A DNA stretch of 64,000 nt. Source: Flavobacterium sp. UBA6721. Its GTDB lineage: Bacteria > Bacteroidota > Bacteroidia > Flavobacteriales > Flavobacteriaceae. Positions within the stretch are counted from its first letter, which is position 1; each line of letters opens with the position of its first letter. The notes under the pieces were generated by a model that did not search any database, was not told where the DNA came from, and saw nothing but the letters and a program-made list of their open reading frames with translations. Made by a program: the position numbers and the translations under genes. The DNA lies in contig DKIJ01000026.1 of assembly GCA_002454195.1 (NCBI GenBank), positions 1-64,000 on the forward strand, given 5' to 3'. This document shows positions 9,979 through 15,583 of the stretch, in pieces.

Positions 9979-11369
9979 TTAAAGATTGTCGGGAATTGTA
10001 AATTTGAAAATGCTTCCTTTAGCTATTTCGCTTTCCACCCAAATTTTCCCACCATGTTTTTCAACAAAATCTTTGCAAAGCATCAATCCTAAACCGGTAC
10101 CGGATTCATTATTAGTTCCCGAAGTTGTTTTTCTTTTATTGATGGCAAATAAACTGGTGATTTTTTCCGGAGCAATTCCTATTCCGCTGTCTTTTACTGA
10201 AAAGATAACCTGATGGCTTTCTCTTTTCATTGAAAGGGTAATTTCACCATTATTTTCAGTGAATTTTATAGCATTAGAAATTAAGTTTCTAAAAATGGTT
10301 TCCAGCATATTGCTATCGGCAGTTACAAATTGATTTTTCTCAATTTCTGAATGGATCGAAATGTTTTTGTTTTTGGCAATATTAGTTAACAAGTGTACTG
10401 TTTTGCAGACAATAGCACTTAAATCTGTTTTTTTAGGATTGAATGTTAGACTGCCTGTTTGTGATTGAGCCCAGCTAAGTAAATTTTCCAAGAGGGAAAA
10501 AGTATTTTTAGAAGATTGATGAATGAGTTCAATAAATTCATTCGCTTCTTCATTGTTCAAATCATTGTCTTTTTCGAGCAAAAGTTCTGATAATCCTATA
10601 ATACCATTAAAAGGACCTTTCAAATCATGGGCAATAATGGAGAAAAATGGTTTTTATCCTCTAAAAGTTTTTTTACCTGAATTTCTTTTTCTTCTTGTAA
10701 TAAAAGTAAATAACCTACTCCACTGATGGTCATCATTAGAAATATAATCAAAAACATTGTTCTTTGAGTAGTTTCGACAGAGTAGAGGCTGGTTGAAGTG
10801 TTAAACAAAGGATATATCATTCTAAAAGCTAAAGCTGATAGTAAAATGATATAGTTAAGTCCAAGGATTTTTCTAAATAAACTGCCATTTATTTCTGTTA
10901 AAAAAAGTAAAGTTGGAACCAAAAGAAGCAAAAAAATGTTCAAAGAGGCCAATGATACACGGATATTGTTTGGGGCTTGTAAGCCAACGGCAATGTAGAA
11001 ACTTAAAAGTGTAAAAATAAAAAGGATGGATTGTCTTTGAAAGGTTCTTTTGGTGCTGCTTTTTACAATCATCAACATAGCAACAGATTCCAGAAAATAG
11101 CCTGAAAAAACCAAGGTATTCGTTATGATAAATTTAATGGAATCATAAGAAACAGTATCTGTTCGCAGGAAAAATGCCAACCAGGCAAAGGATAATAAAA
11201 TCTTAGAAAAACCAAAGACTAATAATTGTTTTTGCGATTCTTTACTAAAAATGGTATAGCGAAAAGTAAAAACGAGAATCGCCAGAGTGAAGCTTCCCCA
11301 AAACAGAATCCCCATTGTATTACGAATATCTAATGAAAATAATTTCGAAAATTGCTGTAGGATTTCCAT
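9979..11369 (-). pseudogene. Membrane sensor histidine kinase, split by a 1-bp frameshift at the H-box
   Basis: Two adjacent frames (10620-11369 and 9979-10623) together form one sensor kinase. The first 249 codons encode about seven hydrophobic helices and a linker ending in KKLLEDKNHF. The second frame begins KGPFNGIIGLSELL and continues through the N-box (NLISNAIKFTENNG), G1 (DSGIGIAP) and G2 (GTGLGLMLCKDFVEKHGG). Adding one base to the five-A run at 10643-10647 (T run on the coding strand) restores FFSIIAHDLKGPFNG, the phosphoacceptor H-box. As given, the membrane sensor and kinase core are uncoupled and the phosphoacceptor His is lost. This may be a true mutation, homopolymer slippage or a sequencing error. 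No response regulator gene is adjacent. Confidence 0.85.
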
Positions 11370-12252: not shown

Positions 12253-12828
12253 CTATTGAATCTCTTTTAATTCCAAAGGAAAGATGTTTTCCACTTTTAC
12301 AACGAGATTATTTTCAGAATTTCTTTGAACTCTATACTGTATTAAGCTTTCATATTTTTTATTTTTAACCATCGGAACTGAAATAGTGTCAAGTGCTTTG
12401 TCAATAAGATCCTTCTTTTTACTATAATTTGGATCTAATTTTAGCATTTCTATTAAGCCTAGTCCTGAAAGAAATTCCGGTTCAACTTCTGAAATCGACA
12501 ATTTTGCTTCACAACCACAACTTTTTAATTCAGAATCTTTATTTGAAGTCATTATCTCTGTTATTTTTATATTTTCAGAATTAATTACATTATCAGGATA
12601 GAACGATAAGGGATTGCCTCCTAATACATCTCCAATGTTTTTCTTGTTTTCTTTAATGATTTCATAAATAGTCTTGAAAACATCAGATTCATCACATTTG
12701 GGAGTGTTATCTTGACTTATGAATTTAGATATTGACGAAATAATAGAACTAGATTCATCCCCTTTTGAAGTTTTGTTTTGACAAGAAATTGTAACTACAA
12801 ATAGTAATAATAATAAAGTTTTTTTCAT
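12253..12828 (-). CDS. Putative lipoprotein, last gene of the SHOCT operon
   Basis: A 191-residue protein with a lipoprotein signal (MKKTLLLLLFVVTISC), the lipobox Cys being residue 16. The mature part is hydrophilic and rich in Lys/Glu/Asp, with Cys at about 43 and a CGC pair near 103-105 that could form disulfides. I do not recognise a domain, and it carries no SHOCT segment. It follows the Imm-like gene by 12 bp on the same strand and is almost certainly cotranscribed with the four SHOCT genes. If the operon forms an envelope complex, this would be its lipid-anchored periplasmic member. That role is inference from position only. Confidence 0.7.
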   Translation of the reverse strand: MKKTLLLLLFVVTISCQNKTSKGDESSSIISSISKFISQDNTPKCDESDVFKTIYEIIKENKKNIGDVLGGNPLSFYPDNVINSENIKITEIMTSNKDSELKSCGCEAKLSISEVEPEFLSGLGLIEMLKLDPNYSKKKDLIDKALDTISVPMVKNKKYESLIQYRVQRNSENNLVVKVENIFPLELKEIQ

Positions 12829-12840
12829 AATATCGTATTT

Positions 12841-13170
12841 TTAGGGGTTTAATATTTTTCTCTTTTGATTTTCAAATTCATCAGTAGTTATTATTTTTTT
12901 CTCTAATAATTCATTTAATTTTTCTAATTGTTCATAATTTATATCTTTCTTTTCCTCCATTACAATAATCTGCTGAGGCTCATCATTTTTAGTCAAAGCC
13001 CAAATCAATGCAATAATCCAACAAATCACTGACCAGCCTAAAAAAACATTTAGTAAGATTATCAAAAGTTTACTATCGTTTTTCCTCTCTACAGCTATTA
13101 TTGATGGTAGCAGATAAATAATTGATATAACTATCAAAACAATTATTAATCCTGTAGTATATTTGTCCAT
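12841..13170 (-). CDS. Superinfection immunity (T4 Imm-like) membrane domain fused to SHOCT
   Basis: A 109-residue protein with an N-terminal hydrophobic helix (7-22), the motif LPSIIAVER (21-29) and the segment LNVFLGWSVICWIIALIWAL (40-59). This layout (LPxIIAxxR, about ten residues, LLNxFLGWxxxxWxxALIWA) matches the superinfection immunity protein family related to phage T4 Imm, which blocks entry of DNA from later phages. Residues 80-107 (YEQLEKLNELLEKKIITTDE and onward) form a C-terminal SHOCT module. Its start overlaps the previous gene's stop by 1 bp. Many bacterial family members are uncharacterised, so an anti-phage role is only a hypothesis. Confidence 0.78.
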   Translation of the reverse strand: MDKYTTGLIIVLIVISIIYLLPSIIAVERKNDSKLLIILLNVFLGWSVICWIIALIWALTKNDEPQQIIVMEEKKDINYEQLEKLNELLEKKIITTDEFENQKRKILNP

Positions 13171-13682
13171 TAATATTGATTTAAATTCTTAATATATTTG
13201 GTTTCAAAATCCTCAATTACCTCTTTATGTATTTTTTCATAAATAAAGTCGCCAATAAAACCAAGAAAAAAACGACCAATTATTCCACCTAAACCAACAA
13301 TTCCAATGATGTATACATAAGGAACAATCATAGATACTATAATAAATGGAAATGCATAAATCGCCCACACTCTGAGATTGTAAGTAAATGGAGGGTCTAA
13401 TTTATATGTTATTTTACTACTCTTCTTTCGAAGTCTTATTTCAACTCCTCTATACTCAACATACTGAATTGGAAATTTTTCAAGCTCCACGATTTTATTA
13501 ATGATTACATCATGGGCCGAATTATCTATCGATGTTTTAAATGTTGAATTAGCCAGATTTTCATTATTCTCAACAAGCTTAAGCAATTCTGCTTTCTTAG
13601 CTGTATATTCTTGTTCAGTAATTATTCCTTGTACAAACAATTCGTGCCACTCTTGAATATTTTGATATGTATAGTTTTCCAT
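13170..13682 (-). CDS. Membrane protein with N-terminal SHOCT-like module
   Basis: A 170-residue protein. Residues 5-35 (TYQNIQEWHELFVQGIITEQ and onward) resemble a SHOCT module, unusually placed at the N-terminus. A hydrophilic linker follows, then a basic strand-rich segment at about 60-98 (YVEYRGVEIRLRKKS). Two adjacent hydrophobic helices at about 106-145 are followed by a charged C-terminal tail. The N-terminus is closely similar to that of the protein encoded at 13801-14655, so the two share a recent common module. It overlaps the next gene by 1 bp. The function is unknown. Confidence 0.7.
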   Translation of the reverse strand: MENYTYQNIQEWHELFVQGIITEQEYTAKKAELLKLVENNENLANSTFKTSIDNSAHDVIINKIVELEKFPIQYVEYRGVEIRLRKKSSKITYKLDPPFTYNLRVWAIYAFPFIIVSMIVPYVYIIGIVGLGGIIGRFFLGFIGDFIYEKIHKEVIEDFETKYIKNLNQY

Positions 13683-13800
13683 TTAATTTACTTTATGTAA
13701 AATTGATTTTCTTTTTTATCAGTTAGTTACATCTTTAAAAAACAATTATAATCTTTAGAAAGCTGTATAACACCTGATTTACCACAAGTAGTTTCGCATC

Positions 13801-14655
13801 TTAATCGATATTTTTAACATTCGTTAATTCTAAACTCTTGTTTTCTAAATTATACTCAAATAGACCTGTATAGCAAGGGTGTTCACTTTGACAATTTTCT
13901 GTAGTGATATTAAATGTTCCTTTTAGTATTTTATCATCCAAACTTTGATAATCTAATCCATTAATAAATTGTTCTTTTTCAACTTTTTCAAATCCAGATG
14001 TGCCTAAATTTTCGTTTACCAAATCAATAAATTTGGTTTTAAAATCGTTTGTCAAATCCTCATTTACTATTAATGAGTTATTGTCTGATGTTACTATAAA
14101 CATATTTGAAAGATAATTCTGCATTCCATTTCCTTGCCAACAATTTCCAGCAGTATAATAGACAACGTAATCTTCTATTCCATCATCATTAATGTCAGAA
14201 TGAATTTTGTTTATTCCATCCCCAATTAATGAATACCTGTAAATTTCCGTATCATAATAATTTATGTTCTCCTGAGAATCGTTACATTCGGTTTCAGTAA
14301 TAATTTGAACTTTAGATTGACTTAAATCATTGATATAATCCATTGAAACTTCATCAATGTCTTTTTCTTTACTCATAAAAACAATAGTCGAACCAATCAG
14401 AGCTAAGCCTAAAAAACTTAAAATCCATAATTTGTTTTGTCGAAACCATAAAAATGGCTCATCCTTAATTCTATTTTGAAATTGTTCATCAACTATTTGA
14501 AGAGATGTGACTTCTTCTTTTGTTATAGCCGTTTCATTACTTTCTCCATTTATTAATAATTCTGTTTTCCTTTCTGTAAATTCTTTTTCTGTAATTATTC
14601 CTTGTTCTAACAATTTGTGCCATTCGCGGATATTTTTATATGTATTATTTTCCAT
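13801..14655 (-). CDS. Single-pass membrane protein with N-terminal SHOCT-like module
   Basis: This 284-residue protein has an N-terminal SHOCT-like segment at 5-35 (TYKNIREWHKLLEQGIITEK and onward), a charged linker, and one transmembrane helix at about 77-95 (WILSFLGLALIGSTIVFMS). A C-terminal domain of about 190 residues is predicted to be outside the cytoplasm. That domain contains DINDDGIEDYVV (154-165), an EF-hand or FG-GAP-like Asp-rich calcium-loop pattern. It also has Cys residues (CNDS, GNCWQGNG, NCQSEHPC) suited to disulfides. Its stop is immediately followed by the upstream gene boundary (14655/14656). A 118-bp gap separates it from the next operon gene. No known family was recognised for the C-terminal domain. 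Confidence 0.68.
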   Translation of the reverse strand: MENNTYKNIREWHKLLEQGIITEKEFTERKTELLINGESNETAITKEEVTSLQIVDEQFQNRIKDEPFLWFRQNKLWILSFLGLALIGSTIVFMSKEKDIDEVSMDYINDLSQSKVQIITETECNDSQENINYYDTEIYRYSLIGDGINKIHSDINDDGIEDYVVYYTAGNCWQGNGMQNYLSNMFIVTSDNNSLIVNEDLTNDFKTKFIDLVNENLGTSGFEKVEKEQFINGLDYQSLDDKILKGTFNITTENCQSEHPCYTGLFEYNLENKSLELTNVKNID

Positions 14656-15216
14656 TTAATTCGCAAGTACTTTTGTTTTTTCACTTTCAAATTCTTCTTG
14701 TGTAAAAATCCCTTTATCAAGTAATTCTTTCAGTTCCTTTAATTGGTTTATTTTGTCTTGGTGGGTCATACCATTTACCGTTTTTTTTGTATGTTCCCTT
14801 TCTGCATTTTCTTTCGTTTTCCCTTTTGATTTTTCCTTGCTTTGAATTGTGATTTCTTTAGGGGCAACACCATATTTATTATCTTCCTGATTTCCTTTTG
14901 TACATGCTAATATTAAACCATAAATAGGAATTATGGAAAACCAACCACTTTTCCCAATATCATGCATCCTTCTAACTCCAACCGCAATCGAAGGAATTAA
15001 TATAGCAAGTTGAAAAATTCTAGAAAATAAGTATAATTTTGATAGTGTTTCAGCATTATCTATCACCGATTCAATATCTCTTGAAAGGGAAAAACTAACA
15101 AGGCCAAACCCAGACATTATTATCATATTAAATAAGAAAAAACTCCAATATTCTCTTCTTCCTGATCGACCACTAAATTTTGCATAATCCTGTAATGCTT
15201 TTAGATAATAATTCAT
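14656..15216 (-). CDS. DUF805 membrane protein with C-terminal SHOCT module
   Basis: A 186-residue protein and the first gene of the SHOCT operon. Residues 1 to about 115 are a DUF805 domain: the SGRSGRREYWSFFLFN start, helices at about 24-44, 62-80 and 93-105, and the hallmark RRMHDIGKSGW at 82-92. A Lys-rich linker leads to a C-terminal SHOCT module at 153-184 (KINQLKELKELLDKGIFTQE and onward). DUF805 proteins are small inner-membrane proteins of unknown role and are known to occur fused to SHOCT. A perfect Bacteroidota promoter lies about 50 bp upstream. Confidence 0.85.
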   Translation of the reverse strand: MNYYLKALQDYAKFSGRSGRREYWSFFLFNMIIMSGFGLVSFSLSRDIESVIDNAETLSKLYLFSRIFQLAILIPSIAVGVRRMHDIGKSGWFSIIPIYGLILACTKGNQEDNKYGVAPKEITIQSKEKSKGKTKENAEREHTKKTVNGMTHQDKINQLKELKELLDKGIFTQEEFESEKTKVLAN

Positions 15217-15268
15217 AATTTTTGTTTTTTAATTGTTTATTTAGATGATTTCCTAAAGTATTTTTTCA

Positions 15269-15298
15269 CAAAAATAAAATTATTTCGGTTAAAAACAA
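15269..15298 (-). promoter_or_regulatory. Perfect promoter of the SHOCT operon
   Basis: On the minus strand TTG (15296-15298) is separated by exactly 19 bp from TATTTTTG (15269-15276), a full match to the Bacteroidota housekeeping promoter. The predicted start near 15264 leaves a leader of about 48 nt. A small CGGTT/AACCG inverted repeat (15286-15301) overlaps the spacer and -33 element and could be an operator half-site. Confidence 0.8.
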
Positions 15299-15306
15299 CC
15301 GATTAT

Positions 15307-15336
15307 TTGTAATCACTTATAAAAAATCGATTACAA
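15307..15336. promoter_or_regulatory. Inverted repeat between divergent genes (possible operator)
   Basis: TTGTAATC (15307-15314) and GATTACAA (15329-15336) are perfect inverted copies 14 bp apart. They lie between the SHOCT operon promoter and the XRE gene, where a repressor could control both directions. Confidence 0.4.
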
Positions 15337-15339
15337 GTA

Positions 15340-15367
15340 TTTTCGTTGTATGTGTGCACAACGAAAA
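15340..15367 (+). promoter_or_regulatory. 10-bp-arm inverted repeat spanning the XRE gene start codon
   Basis: TTTTCGTTGT (15340-15349) and ACAACGAAAA (15358-15367) are perfect inverted copies around an 8-nt spacer that begins with the ATG at 15350. The left arm also overlaps a near-consensus -7 element (TATTTTCG, 15338-15345). The dyad could be a binding site for the XRE protein itself or an mRNA hairpin over the start codon. Confidence 0.55.
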
Positions 15368-15583
15368 AAAGAAATTCCGCAAATCGTTATTCTGGTTGGA
15401 AACAGAATAAACGCAATCATAAAAGAAAAAAAACTAAAACAACGTGATGTTGCTCATGACGCAGGTTTGGATGTTGAAAACTTGAGAAAGTATATAAAAG
15501 GTAAACAAGAAATGAAAATTAGCACAATGTTGAAAATTGTTAATTCCCTGGATATTAAAATAAGTGATTTGTTTGAAGAATAG
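15350..15583 (+). CDS. XRE-family helix-turn-helix regulator
   Basis: A 77-residue Cro/C1-type DNA-binding protein. The HTH spans about residues 28-55 (LKQRDVAHDAGLDVENLRKYIKGKQEM), and the C-terminal helix ends ISDLFEE as in many small XRE proteins. It has no sensor or peptidase domain. It is transcribed divergently from the SHOCT operon, with 133 bp between the two start codons, and is the natural candidate to regulate that operon and itself. ATG 15350 is the only Met before residue about 56, so this start is chosen. A -7-like element ending at 15345 implies an almost leaderless transcript. Confidence 0.85.
   Translation: MCAQRKKEIPQIVILVGNRINAIIKEKKLKQRDVAHDAGLDVENLRKYIKGKQEMKISTMLKIVNSLDIKISDLFEE

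What the first reader, a model, noticed from the sequence alone, without database searches (positions are those of the whole stretch)
12253..15583. SHOCT operon: four proteins sharing SHOCT modules, one with a superinfection-immunity domain, beside a divergent XRE gene
Four consecutive genes encode SHOCT or SHOCT-like modules (C-terminal in two, N-terminal in two) attached to different membrane domains: DUF805, a single-pass protein with an Asp-rich exterior domain, a two-helix protein and a T4 Imm-like domain. A lipoprotein gene completes the operon. Genes are 0-13 bp apart except one gap, with a perfect promoter and a divergent small regulator. SHOCT is thought to mediate assembly, so four modules in one operon suggest one membrane complex. 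The Imm-like member raises the possibility of phage exclusion at DNA entry. No description of this arrangement is known to me.
Basis: partly seen in the sequence, partly recalled or inferred. Interest (0 to 1): 0.8.

Follow-up and report, generated by a model that had tools for sequence, protein, structure and literature searches.

The report
Four-SHOCT membrane operon with Imm subunit
A rare, probably mobile bacterial operon makes four membrane proteins carrying the same small tag-like SHOCT module, one of them a relative of phage proteins thought to keep other phages' DNA out, so it may be an unrecognised way of blocking phage entry, though this is untested.

Summary
Four adjacent genes carry SHOCT modules (C-, N-, N-, C-terminal) on a DUF805, a single-pass exported-domain, a two-helix and an Imm_superinfect body; a lipoprotein gene follows and an XRE gene diverges. 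The set is not conserved: g3 has no relative and g2 one among 5.8 billion proteins. The kind recurs: C-SHOCT then N-SHOCT genes lie beside type IIG restriction genes in F. taihuense and beside AbiE and a DNA methylase in another genome. The operon is AT-rich and fills the gap between metG and a DMP19 gene, neighbours in 4 of 7 relatives fetched. A palindrome conserved upstream of 12 of 21 XRE genes covers the operon's -33 box here, so XRE is probably its repressor. New lead: g4's Imm+SHOCT architecture is also a viral gene directly upstream of the tape-measure gene in 34 of 39 loci, against 5 of 40 for Imm alone (seeded sample), HK97 gp15's slot. Best reading: a repressed, horizontally acquired membrane cassette, possibly excluding phage DNA. 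One joint complex, and phage exclusion, are inferred.

The parts
15350..15583 (+). XRE/HTH_26 regulator, 77 aa, divergent
   Evidence: HTH_26 41.7 bits, HTH_3 29.7; relatives at E up to 1e-6 in 31 of 150 Flavobacterium genomes, window's included
15285..15302 (.). palindrome TCGGTT-N6-AACCGA, proposed XRE operator, 65 nt upstream of the XRE start
   Evidence: same site with at most 3 mismatches at -64 to -66 in 12 of 21 assessed XRE loci, window included; 3 more have a 3-mismatch site at -38, 6 have none (shuffles)
15307..15336 (.). second dyad TTGTAATC-N14-GATTACAA
   Evidence: its arms were not found upstream of the 18 other XRE genes printed there
15269..15298 (-). promoter-like TTG-N19-TATTTTTG for the operon; its TTG lies inside the palindrome
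14656..15216 (-). g1: DUF805 membrane domain + C-terminal SHOCT (14665-14745)
   Evidence: DUF805 91.3 bits, SHOCT 28.2 bits; SHOCT place
13801..14655 (-). g2: N-terminal SHOCT (14554-14631) + one TM + exported acidic domain with four cysteines kept in its one relative
   Evidence: SHOCT 22.8 bits, 27.7; one relative, P0003, 47% identical
13170..13682 (-). g3: N-terminal SHOCT (13581-13658) + two hydrophobic segments
   Evidence: SHOCT 29.6 bits; no relative beyond itself
12841..13170 (-). g4: Imm_superinfect domain (12994-13119) + C-terminal SHOCT (12850-12933)
   Evidence: 63.1 and 29.5 bits; phrog_1039 'immunity to superinfection' 86.4 bits
12253..12828 (-). g5: lipoprotein with conserved PKC and CxCE motifs
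   Evidence: no Pfam family over cut-off; 7 distant relatives (alignment); AlphaFold mean pLDDT 74

Best explanation
A horizontally acquired, XRE-repressed operon that makes a set of small inner-membrane proteins plus a lipoprotein. Shown by sequence: architectures, AT-rich composition, a place in a gap between genes that are neighbours in several relatives, and a conserved palindrome covering the operon promoter. Inferred: the XRE protein binds that palindrome and represses both ways; release of repression makes the five proteins, and the SHOCT modules bring at least some of them together at the inner membrane. Inferred more weakly: the Imm-SHOCT protein acts like phage Imm and HK97-type exclusion proteins, occupying or altering the site where a tailed phage passes its DNA through the inner membrane, while g2 and the lipoprotein present exported domains. 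Rough confidence by step: XRE/palindrome control 0.85; horizontally acquired cassette 0.8; SHOCT-mediated association of at least two of the proteins 0.5; phage exclusion as the main function 0.35.
For: GC 0.278 against 0.343 for the rest of the window. metG and the DMP19 gene lie together, 0.45-1.6 kb apart, in 4 of the 7 relatives fetched, against 3.7 kb holding the operon here. Palindrome at -64 to -66 in 12 of 21 XRE loci. g4 is 38% identical over 107 residues, SHOCT included, to viral proteins whose next gene is the tape measure; 34 of 39 viral Imm-SHOCT loci have that neighbour within 250 nt, 5 of 40 Imm-only loci do; by 70% clusters 7 of 11 and 4 of 33. HK97 gp15 lies in the same slot; [quoted passage not shown] C-SHOCT/N-SHOCT loci elsewhere lie beside type IIG RM and beside C5 methylase, resolvase and AbiE.
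Against: The five genes were not found together elsewhere. No PADLOC family at E 0.001 for the operon proteins. In 3 of the 7 relatives fetched the stretch beside DMP19 holds other genes and no metG. Imm without SHOCT is a chromosomal gene in many Bacteroidota (50 of 395 genomes have Imm, 43 of them in one family; 2 of 29 frames carry SHOCT). g4's tree place is with three other Flavobacterium proteins, apart from the 19 phage rows. The viral sample was seeded with a protein beside a tape measure, so adjacency among close relatives is inflated, and 5 of 39 Imm-SHOCT loci lack it. The RM and AbiE neighbours are two loci without a measured base rate. A SHOCT fusion stayed monomeric in the published test (PMC3581485). 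Positive residues of g4 lie in the loop between its two helices, which might put its SHOCT outside the cytoplasm, unlike g2's (charge counts); topology is unsettled.
Confidence: 0.4

Rival explanations
1. An envelope-stress or surface-sensing membrane complex: SHOCTs place disparate domains at the inner leaflet, the exported domains of g2 and g5 sense envelope ligands or damage, and the Imm domain is just a two-helix membrane anchor like DUF805 and TM2.
For: TM2 takes DUF805's place in the F. taihuense pair and zinc-ribbon membrane genes accompany SHOCT genes in G002; Imm genes without SHOCT are ordinary chromosomal genes in many genomes; SHOCT-like domains are tied to PSP envelope-stress operons in PMC11237479 (passages); XRE relatives face other exported-protein genes.
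Against: No PspA, PspC or Toastrack family over cut-off among the six proteins scanned (g4 has sub-threshold PspC rows of 11 bits in NCBIfam); the Imm-SHOCT to tape-measure linkage in viral contigs is unexplained by it.
Confidence: 0.3
2. An accessory cassette whose SHOCT tags have no role in joining the proteins to each other (for example a general membrane-targeting or partner-binding tag); the cluster arose by duplication and shuffling of the tag onto unrelated bodies.
For: The N-terminal modules of g2 and g3 look like duplicates (first 150 nt 68% identical) on unrelated bodies; g2 and the F. taihuense protein share only their first 50 residues; the SHOCT fusion did not multimerise in PMC3581485.
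Against: SHOCT genes sit together in 6 of 150 genomes against about 0.03 expected, with differing bodies; a C-terminal SHOCT gene directly followed by an N-terminal SHOCT gene recurs in three unrelated loci, though the second SHOCT in G002 scores only 15.1 bits.
Confidence: 0.2
3. A decaying or orphan insertion without selected function.
For: Near-orphan proteins, AT-rich composition, assembly 74% complete.
Against: All five frames are open, palindrome and promoter are in place, and g2 keeps 47% identity to a distant relative over 99% of its length.
Confidence: 0.05

Closest known systems
T4 Imm / Imm_superinfect (PF14373)
   Same: g4 residues 18-59 match the family at 63 bits and T4-like phage Imm at 51% over 49 residues
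   Different: g4 has a C-terminal SHOCT, lies in a bacterial operon, and is not shown to block phages
Viral Imm-SHOCT genes beside the tape-measure gene (found here; no description met in the searches named)
   Same: same two-domain order and similar length, 33-39% identity to g4
   Different: no phage genes adjoin g4; g4 groups with three Flavobacterium chromosomal proteins
HK97 gp15 superinfection exclusion protein
   Same: small moron product in the slot just upstream of the tape-measure gene, like viral Imm-SHOCT
   Different: gp15 matches YebO (PF13974), not Imm or SHOCT; the window operon has no tape measure
SHOCT / SHOCT-like modules in PSP-linked membrane operons (PMC11237479, passages)
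   Same: short bihelical module at either end of proteins in membrane-linked operons
   Different: no PSP component over cut-off among the six proteins scanned; four SHOCTs on four bodies in one operon
F. taihuense TM2-SHOCT + N-SHOCT gene pair (L187)
   Same: C-SHOCT gene, then N-SHOCT single-pass protein, with the same WH-type N-SHOCT
   Different: TM2 in place of DUF805, only two genes, beside type IIG restriction genes, exported domain without detectable similarity

Membership tests
SHOCT (PF09851) | profile match over the curated cut-off in g1, g3, g4 | tested here: met
   28.2, 29.6, 29.5 bits against 27
SHOCT (PF09851) | profile match over the curated cut-off in g2 | tested here: inconclusive
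   22.8 bits in hmmscan, 27.7 in the genome search
SHOCT (PF09851) | mediates oligomerisation (proposed function) | not testable with these tools
   PMC3581485 reports a monomeric test fusion
DUF805 (PF05656) | profile match over the cut-off in g1 | tested here: met
   91.3 bits against 25.7
Imm_superinfect (PF14373) | profile match over the cut-off in g4 | tested here: met
   63.1 bits against 27.9
T4 Imm-type superinfection exclusion | blocks DNA injection of a second phage | not testable with these tools
Phage tail-operon moron beside the tape-measure gene | tape-measure gene directly downstream | tested here: not met
   g4 is followed by the lipoprotein gene g5 and the DMP19 gene
HK97 gp15 / YebO | YebO profile match | tested here: not met
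   no YebO row for g4; HK97 gp15 itself matches YebO
Known anti-phage defence system (PADLOC-DB 2.0) | profile match of an operon protein | tested here: not met
   no family at E 0.001 for g1-g5 (g4 has one row at E 0.074); the XRE protein has HTH-type rows such as PDC-M64C at 32 bits
PSP envelope-stress system | PspA, PspC or Toastrack component in the operon | tested here: not met
   no such Pfam row over cut-off in the six proteins; PspC rows for g4 in NCBIfam at 11 bits against cut-offs of 104 and 136

The most novel reading that the evidence does not exclude
A chromosomal, repressor-controlled exclusion machine in which SHOCT is the coupling part: an Imm-SHOCT entry blocker, of the same stock as viral genes that hold the slot beside the tape-measure gene, is joined through SHOCT contacts to exported sensor domains, giving the cell a multi-subunit version of phage superinfection exclusion.
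Probability: 0.18. Interest if true: 0.85.

Novelty: new variant of a known kind. Interest (0 to 1): 0.55.

Why it matters
SHOCT is widespread and, as far as the papers seen here go, has no proven function, and how Imm works is unsettled (recalled). An operon that puts four SHOCTs and an Imm domain together, and a recurrent viral Imm-SHOCT gene beside the tape-measure gene, make both questions testable: does SHOCT join membrane proteins, and does Imm-SHOCT act on the tape-measure or injection site? If so, bacteria would carry a multi-part form of superinfection exclusion that the PADLOC catalogue used here does not list.

Tried and rejected
Relatives of the whole operon: g3 searched in 150 Flavobacterium genomes (only G030's N-SHOCT besides the window) and in 5.8 billion proteins (nothing beyond itself); g2 found one relative, P0003, on a short contig that I could not fetch; none in genome contigs, viral contigs, plasmids or phages; a second genome-contig scan for the WH-type N-SHOCT gave only F. 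taihuense. Lipoprotein g5: 3 of 150 genomes, window included; G047 has it on the same contig as a C-SHOCT gene 6 kb away, not an operon like this one. XRE and lipoprotein scans of viral contigs gave no relative; g4 alone gave no viral pattern match, an alignment of four Imm-SHOCT proteins did.

Idea that the Imm domain by itself means defence: dropped, since most Bacteroidota matches are genes without SHOCT in one family. In one search my ORF caller lost many Imm frames; one search repeated the look and found the frame in 29 of 30 loci, 2 of them (L147, L149, Flavobacterium) with SHOCT, and no other SHOCT frame in those roughly 3 kb loci. Idea that the XRE gene is specific to SHOCT operons: dropped, since its relatives face lipoprotein, secreted and cytosolic genes. 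Idea that g4 is a recent pick-up from the sampled phages: not supported by the tree (long branches).

Counts and drops: one search had 82 loci (L186, L188-L268); three were dropped as too short downstream (L191, L236, L251; L191 and L251 are one contig), leaving 79. One search found 104 relatives and kept the best 80. SHOCT was scored with a home-made profile of 15 segments, cut at 15 bits, that included L186's and the window's own segments; tape measures by phmmer with seven queries from the same loci. Several loci are near-copies, hence the 70% clusters; 23 loci given, two dropped because my ORF caller lost the XRE gene, 21 counted; L110/L113 and L122/L125 are near-copies; 25 loci, two of them (L065, L092) the same place; 9 had 0-2 mismatches with shuffle p of 0.005 or less, 11 had 3 mismatches with p 0.03-0.115, 5 had none; 23 rows chosen by me from the loci. 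DMP19 synteny: 13 of 40 genomes had the gene, window included; I fetched 7 of the other 12 and 4 showed metG in the fetched stretch.

Not in print: searches (SHOCT domain, 11 papers; SHOCT with superinfection immunity, 0; DUF805, 8; two of SHOCT, operon, zinc ribbon; 15 of 100 listed) gave no description of this arrangement in the titles and abstract starts listed; most subscription papers are not held.
Full report
What is there. Five minus-strand genes run from 15216 to 12253 with gaps of 0, 118, -1 and 12 nt. g1 is DUF805 plus a C-terminal SHOCT, g2 an N-terminal SHOCT, one membrane helix and an acidic exported domain, g3 an N-terminal SHOCT and two hydrophobic segments, g4 an Imm_superinfect domain plus a C-terminal SHOCT, g5 a lipoprotein without a family over cut-off. 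Three of the four SHOCTs pass Pfam's cut-off in hmmscan; g2's is at 22.8 bits there and 27.7 in the six-frame search. A 77-aa XRE gene faces them. The genome, an unnamed assembly 74% complete whose genus-mates include Flavobacterium taihuense, has five SHOCT places and four are these.

Not a conserved set, but a recurrent kind. g3 has no relative in 5.8 billion proteins, g2 has one (47% over 99%), and neither was found in the genome, viral, phage or plasmid collections searched apart from the shared N-terminal module (g3 was not run against phages and plasmids). In 150 genomes of the genus SHOCT is found at E up to 0.01 in 66, window's included. Same-strand SHOCT genes within about 1.5 kb occur in six of them (G000, G002, G028, G029, G030, G146), G002 and G028 being near-copies; about 0.03 would be expected by a simple formula. 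In three unrelated loci a C-terminal SHOCT gene is directly followed by an N-terminal SHOCT gene: the window, F. taihuense NAS39 (TM2-SHOCT then N-SHOCT) and G002/G028 (C-SHOCT at 28.1 bits, then N-SHOCT genes at 15.1, under the cut-off, and 27.6 bits, all after two zinc-ribbon membrane genes). Between g2, g3 and the F. taihuense protein only the first 40-50 residues are alike: one module, different bodies.

Where such loci sit. The F. taihuense pair follows, 400 nt downstream, a type IIG restriction-modification gene and its specificity gene (PADLOC 527 and 169 bits). The G002 operon lies between a C5 methylase with a resolvase and an AbiE pair (AbiEii 442 bits, AbiEi 272 bits). G029's lies after a tyrosine recombinase. 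The window operon has none of these: PADLOC has no match at E 0.001 for g1-g5, and of the two upstream neighbours given, the DMP19 protein matched nothing and the 9979-10623 histidine-kinase-like frame matched PDC-M43B weakly (35 bits); its other neighbours were not given to PADLOC. No base rate for such neighbours was measured.

Acquired cassette. The stretch has GC 0.278 against 0.343 for the rest of the window. Of seven relatives fetched, four have metG and the DMP19 gene as neighbours, 0.45 to 1.6 kb apart, in three of them with a 56-aa gene between; in the other three the stretch beside DMP19 holds other genes and no metG. Here 3.7 kb hold the operon, and the 56-aa gene was not found in the incomplete genome (where an empty answer shows little). 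In one relative (G007) the same gap holds two small genes, one hydrophobic and one with a weak zinc-ribbon match.

Control. Upstream of the XRE gene lies TCGGTT-N6-AACCGA at 15285-15302. The same site, with at most three mismatches, lies 64-66 nt upstream of the XRE start in 12 of 21 loci assessed, window included; three more have a three-mismatch site at -38 and six have none. Sites with 0-2 mismatches (9 of 25 loci) had shuffle p of 0.005 or less, those with three 0.03-0.115. In the window the palindrome covers the TTG of TTG-N19-TATTTTTG (15298-15269), the likely operon promoter. The XRE family is found in 31 of 150 genomes and faces varied cargo: lipoproteins, secreted-looking proteins, a 110-aa protein, and in G011 a secreted-looking protein followed by a two-helix C-SHOCT gene. 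So the SHOCT operon is one cargo of a common regulator type. Binding and repression are inferred.

The Imm-SHOCT lead. g4 matches T4-like Imm proteins at 51% over 49 residues and, over its full length with the SHOCT, viral proteins at 38% (E 1e-21). In MT836303.1 and IMG/VR contigs this Imm-SHOCT gene lies in the tail operon just before the tape-measure gene. From that protein 104 viral relatives were found and 80 kept. In 79 assessable loci the tape measure lies within 250 nt downstream in 34 of 39 Imm-SHOCT loci and 5 of 40 Imm-only loci (two more within 1.5 kb); by 70%-identity clusters 7 of 11 and 4 of 33. The seed lay beside a tape measure, so near relatives inflate the figure; the cluster counts are the fairer ones. 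Another Imm gene in that slot has a sub-threshold zinc ribbon instead of SHOCT (YMC11/02/R656). HK97 gp15, an exclusion protein of another family (YebO), occupies the same slot; [quoted passage not shown] This makes exclusion at DNA entry a fair hypothesis for Imm-SHOCT proteins, g4 included, but g4 itself groups with three Flavobacterium chromosomal proteins rather than with the 19 phage rows (97/95 support, long branches).

What speaks against. Imm domains without SHOCT are chromosomal genes in many Bacteroidota: 50 of 395 genomes have Imm, 43 of them in one family, and of 29 Imm frames found in 30 loci only two, both Flavobacterium, carry SHOCT, with no other SHOCT frame nearby (G647's, outside those 30, has one). 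The only direct SHOCT test in print that I saw found a monomer (PMC3581485, parts 1 and 2 of 4 and passages). Charge counts leave g4's topology open, and by the positive-inside rule (recalled) its SHOCT might face the periplasm while g2's faces the cytoplasm, which would spoil a single SHOCT-joined complex.

Verdict. Real, rare and unusual; control and acquisition are well supported, joint assembly is plausible, and phage exclusion is a one-in-three hypothesis that now has a concrete comparative basis and a direct test.

Noticed in passing
L186, L188-L190, L192-L221 (viral contigs): A recurrent Imm-SHOCT gene sits 0-60 nt upstream of the tape-measure gene in 34 viral loci, the slot of HK97 gp15; a possible general exclusion moron of long-tailed phages.
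   Followed up: partly
L232, L233, L246, L260, L267 and L270:4501-5088: Other viral Imm proteins end in a CxxC...CxxC zinc-ribbon-like tail where SHOCT would be (seen by eye; sub-threshold Zn_ribbon_3 match in L270), suggesting that the two tails are interchangeable.
   Followed up: no
window 15285-15302 and XRE loci L092, L106, L108-L113, L117, L122, L125: A small XRE family has a conserved palindrome 64-66 nt upstream of its start and faces varying exported-protein genes across the genus.
   Followed up: partly
L108, L109, L115-L119: A similar-looking 107-128 aa protein, ending near 'LLPxxEMELLDD', is the gene facing several of these XRE regulators (by eye); not identified.
   Followed up: no
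L038, L122: A resolvase and a 332-aa C5 DNA methylase that look alike accompany both the G002 SHOCT operon and an XRE-lipoprotein locus, as if one kind of mobile element carries them (by eye).
   Followed up: no
L097:5310-6123 (G007): The metG-DMP19 gap of another genome of the genus holds two other small genes, one hydrophobic and one with a weak zinc-ribbon match, so this gap may be an insertion spot.
   Followed up: no
places with 63-100 aa frames: In Flavobacteriaceae many SHOCT matches are in 63-100 aa frames, repeatedly as two copies 10-30 kb apart on opposite strands or about 240 bp apart; nature unknown.
   Followed up: no
window 9979-11369: A histidine-kinase-like gene appears as two adjoining frames (10620-11369 and 9979-10623) where relative L093 has one 463-aa frame; could be an assembly error or a broken gene.
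   Followed up: no
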